Source: Pseudomonas protegens
Lineage (GTDB): Bacteria; Pseudomonadota; Gammaproteobacteria; Pseudomonadales; Pseudomonadaceae
Direction: 5' to 3'
DNA: 64,000 nt
NCBI RefSeq assembly: GCF_003363755.1
Contig: NZ_CP031396.1
Span: forward strand, 744,001-808,000
In this document: positions 44,725-62,735 of the stretch, in pieces
Position numbering within the stretch: the first letter of the stretch is position 1
Layout: the number at the start of each line of letters is the position of its first letter
Translations under genes and position numbers: made by a program
The notes under the pieces: model-generated
What the model was told of the DNA's origin: nothing
Seen by the model: the letters and a program-made list of their open reading frames with translations, nothing else
Databases searched by the model: none

Positions 44725-44992
44725 GTAGCCGCTGTCGAGCCTCTGGCGAGGCTGCGCGAAGGTCCGCAGGACCTTGCTTGGCGATCGACCGCCGAACCTC
44801 CGGCGCCTGCAAGGCCGCCGCGTCTCCTGCGGAGCCGTTCGCAGCCTGCGGCAGCGGCTACACAACCCCGCTGTAACCCGAGGCTGCGCAAAGGTCCGCA
44901 GGGCCTTGCCTGGCGATCTCCCGCCGAGACTCTGGCGGTCTCAAGACTTTGCGTCTCCTGCGGAGCCGTTCGCAGCCTGCGGCAGCGGCTAC
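44725..44992. repeat. two tandem REP-like repeats, second supplies a stop codon
   Basis: Copy one runs from GTAGCCGCTG (44725-44734) to CAGCGGCTAC (44852-44861); a second copy lacking the exact left edge runs from about 44870 to CAGCGGCTAC (44983-44992). Both contain GCAAGGTCCGCAGG-like and CTCCTGCGGAGCCGTTCGCAGCCTGCGG-like cores. They fill the 306-base gap between the convergent fetF and SotB genes. The TAG stop of the SotB-like gene lies in the right edge of copy two. Confidence 0.75.
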
Positions 44993-46167
44993 ACGTTGCT
45001 GCGGGCCATGCGCCGCAGGGCCAGGCTGTAGAGCAGCAAGGCCAGGCCCGCCAGGGCGCCGCCCGCCAGCCCGACATAGGCAAAACCCAACTGTCCGCCG
45101 ACCCAGCTGCCCAGCAACGCACCACCGCCGATGCCGATGTTGTAGATCCCGGAGAACATCGCCATCGCCACGTCGGTGGCGTCCGACGCCAGCACCAGCA
45201 CCTTGGATTGCAGGGCCAGGCCGAAGCCCATGATCGCCATGCCCCAGACCACGCTCAGCGCCACCAGGGACCAGACATGGCCGTTGAGGGGCAGCAGCAG
45301 GCTCAGGCACAGCGCCAGCAGGGTCACCGCCGTCAGCAGGAAGCCCTGGGGGCTGTGGCGGTGCAGCCAGCTGAACAGCAGCGAGCCGATGATCCCGGCA
45401 CCGCCAAACACCAGCAGGATCAGGGTCACCACATCGCCCCCCAGGCCCGCCGCTACCTTGATGAACGGCTCGATGTAGCTGTAGGCGGTGAATTGCGCGG
45501 TGACCACCAGGGCCGTCAGCCCATAGATCGCCACCAGCGCCGGGCGTTTGAACAGCAGCGGCAGGCTGCGCAGGGAGCCGGAGTTCTGGCTGGGCAGCAG
45601 CGGCAAGGTACGGATCAACCACAGCACCAGCAAGCCGGCCATCGCCGCGATCACGCCGAAGGTGGTACGCCAGCCCAGGGCTTCGCCCAGCAGACGCCCC
45701 AGAGGAATGCCCAGGACCATGGCCAGGGAAGTGCCGGTGGCCAGCAGGCCCAGGGCCTGCACTTGCTTGCCCGGCGGCGCCAGGCGCACCGCCAGTGACG
45801 CGGTGATGGACCAGAACAGGGCATGGGCCAGGGCCACGCCGATGCGGCTGAGCATCAACAGGCCGAAGCTGTTGGCCAGGCTGGACAGCACATGGCTGAC
45901 GATGAACAGCCCGAACAGCACCGTGAGCAACCGGCGCCGCTCGACGTTACGGGTCAGCAGCATCACCGGCAGCGAGGTCAGGGACACGATCCAGGCGTAG
46001 ATGGTCAGCATCAGCCCGACCCGCGCGGTAGGCAGGTCGAAGCTGGCGCCGATGGCGCTGAGCAGCCCCACCGGCACGAATTCCGTCGTGTTGAAGACAA
46101 AGGCCGCCAGCGCCAACGCGATGACCGGCTGCCAGTTACCTTGAGGTGTAGCCGCGGAGTTGCTCAT
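44989..46167 (-). CDS. sugar efflux / DHA1-type MFS exporter, SotB-like
   Basis: A 392-residue major facilitator with twelve predicted helices. The N-terminal signature [18 protein letters not shown] is characteristic of the SotB/YdeA and YdhP group of sugar and drug exporters, as is [19 protein letters not shown]. The ATG at 46167 is used because the protein then begins with a normal cytoplasmic tail. The stop codon is supplied by the adjoining repeat, so the last residue or two may not be ancestral. A TetR gene lies 160 bases upstream on the same strand and may control it. Confidence 0.82.
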
Positions 46168-46327
46168 GGGCGGGTCGTAATACTCTATCGATGATCGAAC
46201 AGGTCCAGGACCCGATAAAAATGCACAACCCGGGCCAGGAACCATGACCGGGGGCTGCCCGCTTGCGCAGCTGGCGCACGGTGTCGCTGCCTGTTTTTTT
46301 GCGCGACACAGGCTGGCAGGCGCCTGG

Positions 46328-46924
46328 TCAGTTGCCCTGCGCCGCCTCGAAGACCGTCATGGCCAGCGCCACCCCTTTGAGCAGGCGCGCCTGGGTGACC
46401 CCGTCCCGGGCCTGTACCGACAGCCCGTGCAGCACCGTAGAGTAATAATCCCCCAGGGAAGTTGCATCGGTGTGTGCCGGCAGTTCGCCGGACTGCACCG
46501 CTGCTTCCAGGCGCTGGATGATGCTGGCGGTACGGGCCCGGCGATGCTCGGCCAGCCACTCACGCACGCCGTCGTTGTCACTGGAGCAGTTCACCGCCGA
46601 GGACACCACCATGCAGCCCTGGGGATGACCGGCCCGGGTGTAGAGCGCCACCGCCTCTTTGAGCATGCGCTCGATGGCGACATAGGCGCTGGCTTCGCCC
46701 AGGGCCTGGTCGGCAAAACCGCCCTCGTGGCTTTCATAGAGTTCGATGGCCTCGCGAAACAGCGCCTCCTTGGAACCGAAGGCGGCGTAGATCCGCGCCG
46801 AGGCGATCCCCAGGGCCGCCACCAGATCGGCCATGGAAGTGGTTTCAAATCCACGGGCCCAGAACAGCTCAAGCGCTTGGCGCAACGCCTGGTTGCGATC
46901 GAATTCGCGGGGTCTTCCAGCCAT
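46328..46924 (-). CDS. TetR-family regulator
   Basis: A 198-residue repressor. The helix-turn-helix lies at about residues 10-55 ([44 protein letters not shown]), a form common in AcrR-like and NemR-like regulators. The C-terminal domain includes [18 protein letters not shown], typical of the TetR_C group often found with reductase or exporter genes. The ATG at 46924 gives the usual start MAGRPREFD. It may control the exporter downstream. Confidence 0.82.
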
Positions 46925-47066
46925 GGGGGTCGGGTATCTCGTCAGGACAAGGAAACTGACCGGCAGGGGCCGGTCAGTGGGTTGGCGCAAGGCGCCGCGA
47001 CGAAATGATATTAGATTTGCACCGGCCCCGGCCATTTTCCATGGCCCGGGACCGCCTGCCCTTTGT

Positions 47067-47954
47067 TCAGTCGGCGCCCTCCTGAAGAAAGGGCAGCAGG
47101 TGAGCGAGGAACTCCTCGGGCGCCTCTTCCATGATGAAGTGCCCGCAGTCGGGCACGATGGCGCCGCGCAGATCCGTGGCGTGACCCTGCAGGGTCAGCA
47201 AGGGTGCATCGTTGGTGGCGTGCTCGGCGCCAATGGCCAGCACCGGCATTGCCAGCGGTCGCTGCGCGCGCAACTGATTCTGGCGCACGGTCTCGGGAAT
47301 CGCCCGGTAGTAGGCAAAACCCGCACGCAGGCCGCCCGGCGCGGCGTACGCCTCGATATAGACCTCGGCGGCCACCGCCTCGCGGCGATGGGACCAGTGA
47401 TCGAAGATGTAATTCAGGTAGGCCCGCTCGCGTCCGGCGATCAAGGCTTCCGGCAAGTCCCGCAGCTGGTTGAACATGAAGTGCCAGAGAAAGATGTTCT
47501 GCTCTGGCGCGACGAAGATCGGCGGCGCCGCCGCCAGCCCCGGGATCACCGCTTCGGTCAGCGCCAGGCGCTCCACCGCCTGCGGATGATCGCTGGCCAG
47601 GGCGTAGGCGATCCACATGCCGACATCGTGGCCGACCACGCTGTAGCGCTCGAAGCCCAACTGCCCCATCACCTGGTGCAGCACCCCGGCCACATGGCCG
47701 GTGTCGTAGCCCTGCTCCGGGCGGTCGGACTGGCCGCTGCCCGGCGGGTCCACGGCAATGGCCTGGAAGCCTCGGGCGGCCAGGGCCTGGATCACTTCGC
47801 GCCAGGCGTACCAGGTCTGCGGCCAGCCGGGAATCAGCAGCACCGGGCGGCCCGTGCCGGCGCTGACACAGTGGATGCGCTGGCCGTCGATGCGCACATA
47901 GCGATGGGTCAGGCCGCCAGTGTCGGCCTGGGTGTTGTCGGTGAATGCAGTCAT
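47067..47954 (-). CDS. alpha/beta hydrolase of epoxide hydrolase / dehalogenase type
   Basis: A 295-residue hydrolase. The nucleophile position is an aspartate in VVGHDVGMWIAYALA (about residue 108), which points to an epoxide hydrolase or haloacetate dehalogenase mechanism rather than an esterase. Other marks are LLIPGWPQTWYAWR (oxyanion hole HGxP-like), AVDPPGSGQSDRP and the catalytic histidine in PDCGHFIMEEAPEEF. The gene lies 22 bases after the TIM-barrel isomerase and is probably cotranscribed with it. Substrate is unknown. Confidence 0.8.
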   Translation of the reverse strand: MTAFTDNTQADTGGLTHRYVRIDGQRIHCVSAGTGRPVLLIPGWPQTWYAWREVIQALAARGFQAIAVDPPGSGQSDRPEQGYDTGHVAGVLHQVMGQLGFERYSVVGHDVGMWIAYALASDHPQAVERLALTEAVIPGLAAAPPIFVAPEQNIFLWHFMFNQLRDLPEALIAGRERAYLNYIFDHWSHRREAVAAEVYIEAYAAPGGLRAGFAYYRAIPETVRQNQLRAQRPLAMPVLAIGAEHATNDAPLLTLQGHATDLRGAIVPDCGHFIMEEAPEEFLAHLLPFLQEGAD

Positions 47955-47976
47955 GGGGATTCTCTTGATGAAGGGT

Positions 47977-49032
47977 TCAGGCAATGCCGAGCATGCGGTT
48001 GATCTGTTGGCGGTCGATCCCGGCCCCGGCGAAGTCGTCGAAGATCCGCTCGGTGACCTGGATCATGTGGCGGTTGATGAATTCGACACCTTCCCGGGCG
48101 CCGTCCTCCTGATCCTTGAGGCAGCACTCCCACTCCAGGGTCGCCCAGCCCGGGTAGTCGTATTGCGCCAGCTTGGCAAAGATCCCCTTGAAGTCGACCT
48201 GGCCGTCGCCCAGGGAACGGAAGCGCCCGGCCCGCTCGACCCAGGAGCTGTAGCCGCCGTAGATGCCCTGGCGGCCGCTGGGATTGAACTCGGCATCCTT
48301 GACGTGAAACATGCGGATGCGCTCGTGGTAGATGTCCAGGTAACTCAGGTAGTCCAACTGCTGCAGCACGAAGTGGCTGGGGTCGAAGAGGATGTTGCAG
48401 CGCGGGTGACGGTCGACCAATTCATAGAAGCGTTCGAAGCTGGTGCCATCGTGCAGGTCCTCGCTGGGGTGGATCTCGTAGCACAGGTTGACCCCCTGCT
48501 CGTCGCACAGATCGAGGATCGGCCGCCAGCGTCGCGCCAGTTCCTCGAAAGCGGCCTCGATCAAACCTTCTGGACGTTGCGGAAAGGGAAACAGATAGGG
48601 CCAGGCCAGGGACCCGGAAAAGGTGCCCATGTCACCGAGCCCCAGGCGGCGCGAGGCCTTGGCCGCCAGCTTCATCTGCTCTATGGCCCAGGCCGTTCTG
48701 GCTTGGGGATTGCCCCGCAGCGCCTGGGGCGCGAAGTTGTCGCACATTGCGTCGTAGGCCGGATGCACTGCCACCAGCTGGCCAAAGATATGACTGGTCA
48801 GCTCACTGATCACCAGACCCTTTTGCGCCAACTGACCCTTGAGGTCATCGCAGTAATCCTGGCTGTCCGCCGCGGTGGCGACGTCGAACAGACGCGCATC
48901 CCAGGCAGGAATCTGCAGTGCCTTGAAACCCAGGTCAGCAGCCCACTGGGCGATGCCCGACAGGCTGTTGAAGGGAGCGGTATCGGCACTGAACTGTGCC
49001 AGGTGCAGGCTGGGGCCCTTGAGGGTTTTCAT
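47977..49032 (-). CDS. TIM-barrel sugar phosphate isomerase/epimerase family protein
   Basis: A 351-residue protein of the xylose-isomerase-like TIM barrel fold (IolE/IolH and related). Probable metal ligands are the glutamate in NLCYEIHPSED, the aspartate and histidine in ILFDPSHFVLQ, the histidine in RMFHVKDAEF and the glutamate in ATLEWECCLKD. The gene begins at 49032 with GGAG seven bases upstream; that site lies in the 3' arm of a perfect hairpin, so translation may be controlled. It is followed closely by the hydrolase. A role in inositol or sugar catabolism is a family-level guess only. Confidence 0.8.
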   Translation of the reverse strand: MKTLKGPSLHLAQFSADTAPFNSLSGIAQWAADLGFKALQIPAWDARLFDVATAADSQDYCDDLKGQLAQKGLVISELTSHIFGQLVAVHPAYDAMCDNFAPQALRGNPQARTAWAIEQMKLAAKASRRLGLGDMGTFSGSLAWPYLFPFPQRPEGLIEAAFEELARRWRPILDLCDEQGVNLCYEIHPSEDLHDGTSFERFYELVDRHPRCNILFDPSHFVLQQLDYLSYLDIYHERIRMFHVKDAEFNPSGRQGIYGGYSSWVERAGRFRSLGDGQVDFKGIFAKLAQYDYPGWATLEWECCLKDQEDGAREGVEFINRHMIQVTERIFDDFAGAGIDRQQINRMLGIA

Positions 49033-49039
49033 CGCATTG

Positions 49040-49075
49040 CTCCCTATTCTTTGTTGGTCGACAAAGAATAGGGAG
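49040..49075 (-). promoter_or_regulatory. 15-bp perfect hairpin covering the isomerase ribosome binding site
   Basis: CTCCCTATTCTTTGT (49040-49054) and ACAAAGAATAGGGAG (49061-49075) are perfect inverted repeats with a 6-base loop. On the minus-strand mRNA the downstream arm ends in AGGGAG, seven bases before the ATG at 49032, so the Shine-Dalgarno bases are paired in the stem. It could equally be a DNA operator. Confidence 0.6.
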
Positions 49076-49500
49076 CCGCTGTTGCCACGTCAATCATCGG
49101 TGTGCAGAAAAATGCTTTGGGGACGGGCTGATCACCGGTAGCAGCTGGCTTGCCAGGGATAGCGCCGTTCTGCAAACGCGAACGCGCCGGGTACATGAAC
49201 GGGAAGCGCATGGCGCTTCTCCACACACTCGCCAGCTCGCACACTTTCAGTTGTTTGTTTCGCCTATCAATGAATCCTGCGGGCAATAGACTTGTACAAC
49301 TGAATGAACAGCACATCATGAATGTGACTAAAGACTCAGTGAAATCAATTCATTTCCTCTCAATTAATAGCCCGGCATAAAATGCAGCTCAATGATCGAT
49401 AGCTTAGAAACACCACTAAGCAAAAGAACCTAGCAATAACATTGGAAAGTACAGAGAACCGATAAATAAATTCAGGTTCCATCTCGGAAACCAGGACGCC
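49076..49500. other. AT-richer intergenic region upstream of mesX
   Basis: About 425 bases between the isomerase leader and mesX, falling in GC content towards mesX. It contains a MetR-box-like site at 49340-49352 listed separately. No convincing gene or terminator is seen in the rest. Confidence 0.5.
49340..49352 (+). promoter_or_regulatory. MetR-box-like site
   Basis: TGAAATCAATTCA (49340-49352) fits the known MetR consensus TGAA-N5-TTCA exactly and lies about 150 bases before mesX, the first gene of a methionine synthase operon. Confidence 0.55.
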
Positions 49501-50484
49501 ATGAACAAAGAGCTTACATTCACCATCAAAAGCATTTGCTTCGACGAAAACTATCACCCCTCCGAAAATACACGCATCACTACCAACTTCGCCAACTTGG
49601 CCCGTGGCAAAAGCCGCCAAGACAACTTGCGCAACACGTTGAAAATGATTGACAACCGCTTCAATGCCTTGGCGCACTGGGACAACCCCAAAGGCGATCG
49701 TTACGCTGTCGAACTTGAAATCGTTTCCGTTGAAATGGACATTGATACTGCAAACAGTGGCAACGCCATCCCTTTGATTGAAATACTGAAAACGAACATT
49801 TTCGACCGAAAGACCAATGAACGCCTGGAAGGCATTGTCGGAAACAACTTCTCCTCTTACGTACGAGATTATGACTTTAGCGTTCTGTTATTGAACCACA
49901 ACAAGGACCAGCCAGAATTCAGCACTCCCGACAACTTTGGAGAGCTGCATGGGAAGCTGTTCAAGCACTTCATCCACTCAAGCGCCTACAAGGAAAACTT
50001 TAACAAAGCACCGGTTATTTGCCTGAGTGTTTCCAGCAGCCGAACCTATCATCGGACTGAGAACCAGCACCCTGTCTTGGGCTTTGAATACCAGCAGGAT
50101 GAATACTCTCTAACCGATGAGTACTTCAAGAAGATGGGATTGAAGGTTCGCTACTTCATGCCTGCAAACAGCGTTGCGCCTTTGGCTTTCTACTTCGTCG
50201 GTGACTTGCTCAGTGACTACACCAATCTTGAGTTGATCAGCACCATCAGCACGATGGACACCTTCCAGAAGATTTACCGCCCTGAAATCTACAATGCCAA
50301 TTCTGCAGCAGGAAAATCCTATCAACCCAGTCTGAAGCACCAGGATTACTCACTGACTCGTATTGTTTATGACCGAGAGGAACGTAGCCGCCTGGCTATT
50401 GAGCAGGGGCAGTTTGTTGAGGAGAACTTCATCAAGCCGTACCAGGCCATCCTTGAGCAGTGGTCCGCCCATTGCGCTCTTTGA
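49501..50484 (+). CDS. mesX: DUF1852 protein, partner of core methionine synthase (MesX)
   Basis: A 327-residue protein of the DUF1852 family, recognised by LEIVSVEMDIDTANSG, YVRDYDFSVLLLNHNKDQ, LSVSSSRTYHRTENQHPVLG and RYFMPANSVAPLAFYFVGDLL. MesX proteins have been reported as required for the short methionine synthase MesD in aerobic bacteria, possibly in making an unusual methyl donor or in an oxygen-dependent step. No signal peptide or membrane segment is seen. mesD follows 24 bases later. Codon use is clearly less GC-rich than in the siderophore and receptor genes. Confidence 0.85.
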   Translation: MNKELTFTIKSICFDENYHPSENTRITTNFANLARGKSRQDNLRNTLKMIDNRFNALAHWDNPKGDRYAVELEIVSVEMDIDTANSGNAIPLIEILKTNIFDRKTNERLEGIVGNNFSSYVRDYDFSVLLLNHNKDQPEFSTPDNFGELHGKLFKHFIHSSAYKENFNKAPVICLSVSSSRTYHRTENQHPVLGFEYQQDEYSLTDEYFKKMGLKVRYFMPANSVAPLAFYFVGDLLSDYTNLELISTISTMDTFQKIYRPEIYNANSAAGKSYQPSLKHQDYSLTRIVYDREERSRLAIEQGQFVEENFIKPYQAILEQWSAHCAL

Positions 50485-50508
50485 CTCATTGAAATCACAA
50501 GGCCATTG

Positions 50509-51546
50509 ATGATGAAAAAACTGTTACCCACCTCAACTGCCGGCAGCTTGCCTAAACCCTCCTGGCTTGCACAACCTGAAACACTATGGTCGCCCTGGAA
50601 GTTGCAAGGCGAGGAATTGGTCGAGGGCAAACACGATGCTTTACGTTTGTCACTGCAGGAACAGCAACAGGCCGGTATTGATATCGTCAGTGATGGCGAA
50701 CAAACACGCCAACACTTTGTCACTACCTTTATTGAACACCTCAGCGGCGTCGATTTCGCGAAACGTGAAACCGTTAGAATTCGTGATCGCTATGATGCGA
50801 GCGTGCCAACGGTGGTGGGTGCTGTCGCTCGGCAAAAACCGGTATTTGTTGAAGATGCCAAGTTTTTACGTCAGCAAACCAAACAACCCATAAAATGGGC
50901 GCTGCCAGGCCCCATGACCATGATCGACACGCTTTATGACAGCCATTATAAAAGTCGCGAAAAACTGGCTTGGGAATTCGCCAAGATCCTCAATCAGGAA
51001 GCCCGAGAGTTAGAGGCTGCCGGTGTGGACATCATCCAGTTTGATGAGCCCGCCTTTAACGTTTTCTTTGATGAGGTGAATGATTGGGGAGTGGCCACTC
51101 TGGAAAGGGCCATTGAAGGCCTCAAGTGTGAAACGGCGGTCCATATTTGCTATGGCTACGGCATCAAGGCCAACACCGATTGGAAAAAGACTCTGGGATC
51201 AGAGTGGCGACAATATGAAGAGGCTTTCCCCAAGCTGCAAAAATCCAGTATCGATATAGTCTCGCTGGAATGTCACAACTCTCATGTCCCAATGGATCTC
51301 ATTGAACTCATCAGAGGCAAAAAAGTGATGGTCGGAGCCATTGACGTGGCATCCAACACCATTGAAACACCAGAGGAAGTGGCCAATACCCTACGCAAGG
51401 CACTGCAGTTCGTAGAGGCCGACAAACTCTATCCATGCACCAACTGTGGCATGGCGCCACTAGCTCGCGAAGTGGCAAGAGGCAAGCTAAAGGCATTAAG
51501 CGCTGGTGCAGACATTATCCGAAGAGAACTCTCGAACCCGTGCTGA
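50509..51546 (+). CDS. mesD: core methionine synthase, MetE C-terminal type (MesD)
   Basis: A 345-residue protein equal to only the catalytic C-terminal half of cobalamin-independent methionine synthase; the folate-binding N-terminal half is absent. The zinc ligands are all present: His212 and Cys214 in VHICYGYG, Glu254 in SLECHNSH and Cys313 in TNCGMAPL. IIQFDEPAF and LPTSTAGSLPKP are the other family marks. It methylates homocysteine, but the methyl donor is not the usual folate. Start at the ATG at 50509, six bases after AAGG; the next codon is also ATG. The flavin reductase gene downstream probably belongs to the same unit. Confidence 0.87.
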   Translation: MMKKLLPTSTAGSLPKPSWLAQPETLWSPWKLQGEELVEGKHDALRLSLQEQQQAGIDIVSDGEQTRQHFVTTFIEHLSGVDFAKRETVRIRDRYDASVPTVVGAVARQKPVFVEDAKFLRQQTKQPIKWALPGPMTMIDTLYDSHYKSREKLAWEFAKILNQEARELEAAGVDIIQFDEPAFNVFFDEVNDWGVATLERAIEGLKCETAVHICYGYGIKANTDWKKTLGSEWRQYEEAFPKLQKSSIDIVSLECHNSHVPMDLIELIRGKKVMVGAIDVASNTIETPEEVANTLRKALQFVEADKLYPCTNCGMAPLAREVARGKLKALSAGADIIRRELSNPC

Positions 51547-61400: not shown

Positions 61401-62601
61401 CGCGATCGTCAGCTTCAGCCTGCAAAACGGCAGCGGCTCCAGTGCCTCGAGCACCGTCACCTTCACCATCCAGGAACGTTCGGACCCCACCAAGGACGCC
61501 GAAGTGATTGGCCTGCTCAACGCCCAGACCCGGGCCGCGGAACGCTTTGCCAGCACCCAGATGGACAACTTCAACCGGCGGCTGGAGCAACTGCACCAGA
61601 TCAGTTGCGACCGCAATTCGTTCAACGCCAGCCTGCGCAAGGAAGGCCGCGAGGTGCCGCTGGGCGAGATCGCCAAGGCCGTCCAGGACCAACTGGGGGC
61701 CTCGGCCAACCAGACCGAGCAGGAAAAACGCGAAGCCGCTGCCGCCCTCAAAGACAATTGCCAACAGGATGCCCTGGCGTTCTGGAGCGACGGCTTCGTC
61801 AACGTCGGCTCGACCCACGCACGGGGCGCCCGGGACAACAGCTTTACCACCCTGGGCCTGAGCGCCGGGGTCGACTATCGCCTGTCGCCCACGGCCATTG
61901 CCGGGATCGGCTTCGGCTACGGCAACGACCGTAGTGACATCGGCAAGAACCACACCCGCAGCGACGCGGACGCCATCGGCATTGCCACCTACCTGAGCCT
62001 GAACCTGGCCCCGCAGGTGTATGTCGACGGCCTGCTGGGCTACAACCGCATCAGCTTCGACTCACGCCGCTACATCACCGGCAGTGCCGATGACTATGCC
62101 CGTGGCTCGCGGGATGCCGACCAGTTGTTCGCCTCCCTGACCGCCAGCTACGAGTACCGCCAGGGTCCGCTGTCGCTGACCCCTTACAGCCGCCTGAATG
62201 CCAGCACCACGCGCCTGGACGCCTACCGTGAAAGTGGCGGCGGCATTTATGGCCTGTCCTACGACGAGCAGCGCCAGCAGAACTTCACCTCCTACCTCGG
62301 CGTGCGCTCGGGCTACGACCTGATGACCCCTGTCGGTGTGGTCACGCCCAAGGTCGGCCTGGCCTGGGGCCACAACTTCAGTAACAGCAGTGACTACAAG
62401 ATGCGCTACACCGACCAGGGCGACGAAGGCACCCTGTACCGGCTCAAACCCGATGCCCTGGACAGCGATTTCGCCAGCCTGGACATGGGCGTGGACTTCA
62501 ACCTGGGACGCGCCTGGCAACTGGGCGTCTCGTACAAGACCGCCCTGGGCTCGGACGAACGCAACGACACCTTCCGCCTGGGTCTCAACGGTAAGTTCTG
62601 A
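58423..62601 (+). CDS. autotransporter with tandem Ig-like repeats
   Basis: A 1392-residue surface protein. Residues 1-36 form a signal peptide (ending AMA/AAP). Next come a short Ig-like domain with paired cysteines (WVECDAND, TPCLPPG), an IPT/TIG-like domain (about 145-228) and four tandem units of 175 residues (about 232-930), each with a cadherin-like half (HGTATASGTSITYTPTAGF, GSDSFTYTATN) and a putative-Ig half (TAPYTYAITAGSLPAGL, ISGTP). A linker (about 1020-1115, helical, two cysteines) leads to a C-terminal beta-barrel (about 1125-1392) that ends with Phe. It is secreted by the type V route and likely an adhesin or a docking site for the collar proteins encoded before it. ATG at 58423 with AGGA seven bases upstream. 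Confidence 0.88.
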   Translation: MRTPLTTLGIWLTRPLISLFLLLVMLTVSSQAMAAAPVITNPATGSTLPSVAVGQPMSIVINSVGGAQPLDQWVECDANDPDYDGVTPCLPPGLILDPSPGSSNTLLHGTPTTAGTYTFSITLNDGLNQGGVATYTLVVTSSATPTLTAVNPNTGSTAGATSVTLTGTNLTGATAVSFGGTAATGYIVNNATTITATTPAHAAGVVNVVVTTPGGTATLTNGYTYNVPPPTVGPVSATVAANSSANPITLSLSGGAASSVAVDTAASHGTATASGTSITYTPTAGFSGSDSFTYTATNASGTSSPATVTITVTPPTLAITPTTLPDGTQGAAYSQTLSATGGTAPYTYAISAGSLPAGLSLNTSTGVISGTPSSSGTSNLTVTATDANSATGSRAYSLVINGLAPVAGAVSATVAANSSTNPITLNLSGGAATSVAVASAASHGTATASGTSITYTPTAGFSGSDSFTYTATNASGTSSPATVTITVSAPSITLSPGSLSNGSVGTAYNQTVTATGGTAPYTYAITAGSLPAGLILNTATGAISGTPMASGSLSLTITATDANSATGSQAYSITIGVQAPVAGAVSATVAANSSANPITLNLSGGAATSVAVASAASHGTATASGTSITYTPTAGFSGSDSFTYTATNASGTSSPATVTITVSAPSIVLSPGSLSNGTVGTAYIQTITATGGTAPYTYAITAGSLPAGLILNTATGAISGTPMASGSLSLTITATDANSATGSQAYSITIGVQAPVAGAVSATVAANSSANPITLNLSGGAATSVAVASAASHGTATASGTSITYTPTAGFSGSDSFTYTATNASGTSSPATVTITVSAPTLVLTPASLGAGTAGSAYSATLSVSGGTAPYSYSISSGSLPAGLSLNTASGLISGTPSTSGTANLTITATDANGATGSQAYSITIAAVAISVPASSQILAAGQSATVDLTQGATGGPFTQAILGSVTPASAGQARMMGPFSMRFVPSAAFAGTAIVSFSLQNGSGSSASSTVTFTIQERSDPTKDAEVIGLLNAQTRAAERFASTQMDNFNRRLEQLHQISCDRNSFNASLRKEGREVPLGEIAKAVQDQLGASANQTEQEKREAAAALKDNCQQDALAFWSDGFVNVGSTHARGARDNSFTTLGLSAGVDYRLSPTAIAGIGFGYGNDRSDIGKNHTRSDADAIGIATYLSLNLAPQVYVDGLLGYNRISFDSRRYITGSADDYARGSRDADQLFASLTASYEYRQGPLSLTPYSRLNASTTRLDAYRESGGGIYGLSYDEQRQQNFTSYLGVRSGYDLMTPVGVVTPKVGLAWGHNFSNSSDYKMRYTDQGDEGTLYRLKPDALDSDFASLDMGVDFNLGRAWQLGVSYKTALGSDERNDTFRLGLNGKF
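59119..61218 (+). repeat. four tandem 525-bp repeats inside the autotransporter gene
   Basis: The base GTCAGCGCCACGGTGG recurs at 59125, 59650, 60175 and 60700, an exact period of 525 bases (175 codons). Units two and three and the first half of unit four are nearly identical in DNA, while unit one and the end of unit four differ more. Confidence 0.9.
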
Positions 62602-62692
62602 ACGACACGTTCTGAACCCTGGCCACAGATTAGTGGCCCAGGGCTGAACCCCACAGATGGAAATGGCTCCCCTTGAGCCACGGCAACAAAAC

Positions 62693-62735
62693 AACACCCC
62701 GCCAGAGTCCGACTCTGGCGGGGTGTTGTGTTTTA
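62693..62735. terminator. strong bidirectional terminator
   Basis: CAACACCCCGCCAGAGTC (62693-62710) and GACTCTGGCGGGGTGTTG (62712-62729) form an 18-bp arm pair, with GTTTT on the right and AACAAAA on the left, between the convergent autotransporter and aminotransferase genes. Confidence 0.85.

What the first reader, a model, noticed from the sequence alone, without database searches (positions are those of the whole stretch)
49040..49075. Perfect 15-bp hairpin hides the isomerase ribosome binding site
In the minus-strand transcript the 3' arm of a perfect inverted repeat ends in AGGGAG seven bases before the start codon. A 15-bp stem would block ribosome access, suggesting translational control by temperature, a protein or RNA processing. 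The symmetric sequence could also be a transcription operator.
Basis: partly seen in the sequence, partly recalled or inferred. Interest (0 to 1): 0.6.

Follow-up and report, generated by a model that had tools for sequence, protein, structure and literature searches.

The report
Repressor operator overlapping the isomerase promoter
The perfect inverted repeat is most likely the DNA landing site of a CifR-like TetR repressor, laid over the promoter of a small enzyme operon, and not an RNA hairpin that hides the ribosome binding site.

Summary
The repeat is real: perfect 16-bp arms (49061-49076, 49039-49054) around 6 bp, one bp longer than reported, single-copy in the genome. It is most likely a transcription operator. 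A sigma-70-like promoter, TTGACG-17-TATTCT (49093-49065), has its -10 box inside the left arm, so RNA should start in the spacer (about 49058) and lack that arm; RNA folded from there shows no unusual structure. Among 28 distinct related loci the operator is present in 28 and the promoter in 27. What is kept is the sequence, not perfect pairing. The site tracks a TetR gene whatever it controls: it lies upstream of tetR in 29 of 29 loci whose TetR has the recognition helix SAR(I/L)Y, against 0 of 48 fetched relatives with other helices (one clade, so one evolutionary event). These include rhizobial loci without the isomerase. Paired sites lie 51, 62 or 63 bp apart, near whole helical turns. The operon (hydratase-like 'isomerase', Cif-like epoxide hydrolase, CifR-like TetR, MFS) resembles the P. 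aeruginosa cif system. Protein binding, repression, start site and ligand are inferred. The mechanism is ordinary; this operator was not found in the papers searched.

The parts
49061..49076 (-). left arm of the perfect inverted repeat (contains the -10 box)
49055..49060 (-). 6-bp spacer CGACCA; predicted transcription start about 49058
   Evidence: start inferred from the -10 box
49039..49054 (-). right arm of the inverted repeat
49050..49065 (-). 16-bp operator core TTTGTCGACCAACAAA (family consensus TTTGTCGATCGACAAA)
   Evidence: 28 of 28 distinct related loci at up to 2 mismatches
49088..49093 (-). -35 hexamer TTGACG
49065..49070 (-). -10 hexamer TATTCT, inside the left arm, 17 bp after the -35
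49040..49045 (-). Shine-Dalgarno-like AGGGAG at the end of the right arm
47977..49032 (-). first gene: 'isomerase' (PF01261 TIM barrel), close to 2-hydroxy-3-keto-glucal hydratase
47067..47954 (-). second gene: alpha/beta hydrolase, Cif-like epoxide hydrolase relative
46328..46924 (-). third gene: CifR-like TetR regulator, the predicted repressor
44989..46167 (-). MFS transporter gene, probably the end of the same gene cluster

Best explanation
The repeat is the operator of a CifR-like TetR-family repressor encoded two genes downstream (46328-46924). It is laid over the -10 box and the start of the promoter of the isomerase-hydrolase operon. The repressor on the palindrome blocks RNA polymerase; an inducer, by analogy an epoxide or a related reactive metabolite, releases it. 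Transcription then starts in the spacer, so the mRNA carries only the right arm and its Shine-Dalgarno sequence is free. Shown by sequence: the palindrome, the promoter position, their conservation, and the association with one TetR clade. Inferred: protein binding, repression rather than activation, the start site, the inducer.
For: Promoter with its -10 inside the left arm, in 27 of 28 distinct related loci, operator in 28 of 28. RNA from the predicted start has no unusual structure (z +1.13). Exact operator pattern in 20 of 22 genomes of the genus with the close isomerase and 0 of 276 others. tetR linked to the isomerase in 20 of 20 fetched relatives, divergent across this promoter in 17. 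Operator beside tetR without isomerase or hydrolase in L057, L062, L067 and L068, and before the hydrolase gene in L114. Operator upstream of tetR in 29 of 29 loci with helix SAR(I/L)Y and 0 of 48 with other helices. Paired sites 51, 62 or 63 bp apart in 11 of 29. Best solved relative of the TetR is the repressor CifR.
Against: No binding, footprint or start-site data. The promoter matches 9 of 12 consensus bases and 0.5 sites are expected per shuffled region. L063 has the operator but no such promoter. In the window's clade tetR is not beside the operator. The 29-of-29 association is one clade, so one event. Several second sites of a pair are weak, 3 to 4 mismatches. The CifR operator itself could not be compared.
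Confidence: 0.92

Rival explanations
1. One reading: both arms are in the mRNA and the stem hides the Shine-Dalgarno sequence until temperature, a protein or RNA processing opens it.
For: With both arms the RNA folds strongly and the Shine-Dalgarno sequence is in the right arm. Pair 9 is pairable in 15 of 28 against 11.1 expected, a small excess.
Against: The -10 box lies in the left arm. The stem is imperfect in most relatives: pair 9 unpairable in 13, pair 13 in 7 and pair 16 in 19 of 28. The site also occurs before tetR and at second positions away from the isomerase start. No Rfam match.
Confidence: 0.04
2. It is an operator, but of another DNA-binding protein than the linked TetR, or the TetR acts as an activator there.
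For: No binding data; tetR is not adjacent to the site in the window's clade.
Against: The site follows the TetR clade into genomes without the isomerase, and a site over -10 and +1 is typical of repression (established knowledge).
Confidence: 0.03
3. A terminator or mobile-element remnant.
For: Long perfect inverted repeats are common in such elements.
Against: Single copy in the genome, no terminator called at the repeat, kept in place and sequence before orthologous genes.
Confidence: 0.01

Closest known systems
CifR and the cif operon of Pseudomonas aeruginosa
   Same: TetR regulator related to CifR (E 1.1e-39); linked gene for a Cif-like epoxide hydrolase; regulator divergent from the operon in most relatives; MFS gene nearby in the window. 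Recalled, not read: CifR sites of 27 bp overlapping -10 and +1 (Ballok et al. 2012, not held).
   Different: First gene is hydratase-like, not morB. In the window tetR lies downstream in the same direction. Recognition helix ASARIYAAF against PPSLYAAF in CifR. Epoxide response untested.
Cif-like epoxide hydrolases with nearby tetR genes (cfl1 and cfl2, Burkholderia cenocepacia; PMC8244358, passages seen)
   Same: Hydrolase best matches Cif-like 1 (7jqx, E 8.2e-61); hydrolase and tetR in the same direction, without morB.
   Different: Here a hydratase-like gene comes first. The window's hydrolase has PGWP where canonical epoxide hydrolases have HGXP.
2-hydroxy-3-keto-glucal hydratase (8ro4) and the AtHYD-type hydratases of glycoside beta-elimination
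   Same: Best solved match of the 'isomerase' over its whole length (E 2.2e-159).
   Different: The Agrobacterium operon holds two oxidoreductases and a second such enzyme (passages of PMC10628242); here the partners are a Cif-like hydrolase, TetR and MFS. That 8ro4 is the AtHYD of that paper is my inference.

Membership tests
TetR-type operator over a promoter | palindromic site overlapping the promoter of linked genes | tested here: met
TetR-type operator over a promoter | site goes with the regulator gene across genomes | tested here: met
   29 of 29 against 0 of 48; one clade
TetR-type operator over a promoter | regulator binds the site and inducer releases it | not testable with these tools
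   needs gel shift, footprint and reporter
CifR/cif regulatory system | regulator homologous to CifR | tested here: met
   best solved match, E 1.1e-39 over residues 2-189
CifR/cif regulatory system | linked Cif-like epoxide hydrolase gene with His-Tyr ring-opening pair | tested here: inconclusive
   E 8.2e-61 to Cif-like 1; Asp, His and Tyr of the pair appear aligned by eye, but the HGXP motif reads PGWP; activity untested
CifR/cif regulatory system | morB as first gene of the operon | tested here: not met
   first gene is a TIM-barrel hydratase-like protein
CifR/cif regulatory system | same operator as CifR | not tested
   primary papers not held
CifR/cif regulatory system | release by epoxides | not testable with these tools
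   needs experiment
RBS-masking RNA hairpin | both arms in the transcript | tested here: inconclusive
   predicted start lies between the arms; start not mapped
RBS-masking RNA hairpin | stem kept by compensating changes among relatives | tested here: not met
   pair 9: 13 of 28 unpairable, 15 pairable against 11.1 expected; pair 13: 7 of 28 unpairable

The most novel reading that the evidence does not exclude
A distinct clade of CifR-like repressors changed both its recognition helix (from PSLY/PSFY-like to SARIY) and its operator (from TGTATCGATCGATACA-like to TTTGTCGATCGACAAA) while keeping the same palindromic centre, and carried that operator to different target genes: hydratase plus epoxide hydrolase, hydrolase alone, or an MFS gene. 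In the window's lineage the repressor was replaced by one from another branch and moved downstream, so helix and operator form a readable specificity pair.
Probability: 0.5. Interest if true: 0.45.

Novelty: new member of a known kind. Interest (0 to 1): 0.3.

Why it matters
It explains a sequence that looks like a regulatory RNA hairpin as an ordinary operator and shows how to tell the two apart: look for a -10 box inside the arm. It predicts regulator, operator and target genes for an operon that pairs a glycal-hydratase-like enzyme with a Cif-like epoxide hydrolase. The matched helix and operator classes give a directly testable specificity rule within the CifR-like family.

Tried and rejected
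Rfam: no match at E up to 1 in 48500-49600. Dispersed repeat: single copy. Terminator: none called at the repeat. A first pass at gene neighbourhoods by longest ORFs picked many antisense frames and was replaced by tblastn with the window's proteins. Upstream stretches were first printed unoriented and redone. Literature: a search for operator letters found 523 papers with at least one of five terms; the 12 listed hold only the 8-base fragment, and since papers with more terms are ranked first, none of the 523 should hold either 16-base form (both contain a second term). CifR searches (capped lists) gave one paper that I used, PMC8244358. The glucal-hydratase search listed no fitting paper; another listed PMC10628242. 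CifR's own operator could not be compared: the two papers tried by id are not held. Structure prediction was not used.

Full report
WHAT IS THERE. On the minus strand the sequence before the isomerase ATG (49032) holds GCTCCCTATTCTTTGT-CGACCA-ACAAAGAATAGGGAGC: perfect 16-bp arms, 49061-49076 and 49039-49054. The reported 15 bp is one short; the AGGGAG and its 7-base distance to the start codon are right. No perfect 15-bp repeat with a spacer of 20 or less arose in 20 first-order Markov resamples of the window. The site is single-copy in the genome at up to 3 mismatches.

PROMOTER INSIDE THE REPEAT. TTGACG (49093-49088), 17 bp, TATTCT (49070-49065) is the only sigma-70-like site called on either strand of 48900-49520. 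The pattern TTGACG-N17-TATTNT occurs once in 64 kb and in none of 100 shuffles; I wrote it after seeing the site. The -10 box is part of the left arm. With the usual distance (established knowledge) RNA starts at about 49058, in the spacer, and carries only the right arm. Folded from 49058, that RNA is less stable than the average shuffle (z +1.13; 180 of 200 shuffles fold at least as well). With the left arm added it forms the long stem (z -5.19). So the stem needs a transcript that the visible promoter would not make. Caveat: the site matches 9 of 12 consensus bases and 0.5 sites are expected per shuffled region; conservation carries the weight.

CONSERVATION. Of 298 genomes of the genus, 162 have some match to the isomerase, and 22, the window's own included, have a close one (71-100% identity, L002-L023). 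All 22 have the operator in front of it. The eight more distant homologues fetched (L024-L031, 64-65%) show no such site by eye in the 125 bases printed. The core TTTGTCGATCGACAAA is present in 28 of 28 at up to 2 mismatches. TTGAC(G/C)-17/18-TATT.. is present in 27 of 28; the miss is L063 (the expression was written after seeing the first loci). Across the genus the pattern TTNTTTGTYRAYCRACAAA is exact in 20 of the 22 and 0 of the 276 others. At one mismatch it is in 22 of 22 and 15 of 276; the reversed control pattern hits 21 of 298, so the 15 look like chance (rows counted by me).

NOT A CONSERVED STEM. tabulates the 16 pairs nearest the centre in the 28 loci. Pair 9, the most variable pair of the core arms, is unpairable in 13; 15 pairable against 11.1 expected from column make-up is a small excess. 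Pair 13 is unpairable in 7 and pair 16 in 19. Most other arm pairs hardly vary, so they say nothing for either reading. The six central bases, an unpaired loop in the hairpin reading, are mostly a palindrome (CGATCG) in the relatives; the window's own CGACCA departs from it at two places. The perfect 16-bp symmetry of the window is thus a local refinement of a conserved sequence. By contrast, a hairpin between the hydrolase and tetR genes (46955-46978) shows changes on both sides in 3 of 7 pairs among five sequences.

THE REGULATOR. A tetR gene lies near the isomerase in the window and in 20 of 20 relatives fetched (the 22 less the window and G076). It is divergent and directly across the promoter in 17, and third in line after isomerase and hydrolase in the window and three relatives, as also in L054 and L055. 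Its best solved relative is CifR (E 1.1e-39). The operator follows this gene. In Rhizobium lusitanum (L057) and three unnamed loci of the phylum (L062, L067, L068), TetR at 58-67% identity has two sites upstream of itself (mismatches 1 and 4, 2 and 1, 0 and 3, 0 and 3). The isomerase and hydrolase have no match there in the stretch held, which is 10.6 kb for L057 and about 1.5 kb on each side for the others. In L114, from another genus of the family, the site overlaps TTGACA-17-TATTAT before the hydrolase gene (48% identity), with no isomerase match in the short stretch held.

HELIX AND OPERATOR. One search examined 83 tetR rows, among them loci that searches returned (30 each, the best of longer match lists; the window's own copy is counted once). 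Six rows were set aside because tetR lies downstream; their operator lies before the isomerase. Of the 77 others, the operator at up to 2 mismatches lies within 300 bp upstream in 29 of 29 with helix SAR(I/L)Y and 0 of 48 with other helices. Among the 48, two have a site at 3 mismatches (L070, L083) and five at 4. Thirteen of the 48 have TGTATCGATCGATACA-like sites at up to 2 mismatches; that consensus was read from some of these same loci, so this is descriptive. The SAR(I/L)Y group is one side of a branch with 100/100 support, so this is one event, not 29, and some rows are near-copies. Pairs of sites (up to 4 mismatches) occur in 11 of the 29, at 51 bp (6), 62 bp (4) or 63 bp (1), close to five or six helical turns, as expected for proteins on one face of DNA (inference).

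A SWAP. In the isomerase tree of 30 rows the window's six-row clade lies with 17 others against seven rows (L049-L053, L058, L112; 95/92). In the TetR tree it lies with those seven against the 17 (100/98). The simplest reading is that the window's lineage exchanged its regulator and moved the gene downstream. G108 (L023, L053), on the same TetR side, has an operator identical to the window's over the searched 32 bp although its isomerase is only 71% identical.

THE OPERON. The 'isomerase' matches 2-hydroxy-3-keto-glucal hydratase over its full length (8ro4, E 2.2e-159). PMC10628242 (passages) places a putative hydratase of this kind, AtHYD, in a glycoside beta-elimination pathway on preliminary evidence. 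The hydrolase matches Cif-like epoxide hydrolases (E 8.2e-61), but has PGWP where PMC8244358 gives HGXP as canonical (passages). The same paper describes CifR as a repressor of the cif operon released by certain epoxides, and reports that of two such genes in B. cenocepacia only cfl2 responded to the epoxides tried (passages). So epoxide control of the window's operon is a guess by analogy. That CifR sites are 27 bp and overlap -10 and +1 is my recall of Ballok et al. 2012, which is not held.

VERDICT. Operator of the linked CifR-like TetR over the promoter: confidence 0.92. RBS-masking hairpin: 0.04. Binding, repression, start site and ligand are untested. The operator letters were not found in the library searched, which lacks most subscription papers and does not hold figures.

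Noticed in passing
46955-46978 (minus strand): A 10-bp hairpin between the hydrolase and tetR genes, about 31 nt before the tetR ATG; in five sequences of the clade 3 of 7 stem pairs change on both sides. It is a better candidate for a real RNA structure than the repeat of the finding.
   Followed up: partly
about 46995-47020 (minus strand): AAATCTAATATCATTTCGTC is identical in 6 of 6 tetR leaders of the window's clade; possibly a separate tetR promoter.
   Followed up: no
62691-62729: A second perfect inverted repeat of at least 16 bp, followed by a T-run, between genes ending at 62601 (+) and 62771 (-); looks like an ordinary terminator.
   Followed up: partly
L070, L083, L125, L131-L139, upstream of tetR: Other CifR-like regulators (PSLY or PSFY helix) often have TGTATCGATCGATACA-like palindromes, 13 of 48 at up to 2 mismatches: a sister operator class.
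   Followed up: partly
window 44989-49032 against relatives: Isomerase and TetR trees disagree on the place of the window's clade, suggesting exchange and relocation of the regulator.
   Followed up: partly
49501-51546 (+): A MesX gene (PF08908) and a cobalamin-independent methionine synthase-like gene (PF01717) lie on the other side of the 0.4-kb gap, divergent from the isomerase.
   Followed up: no
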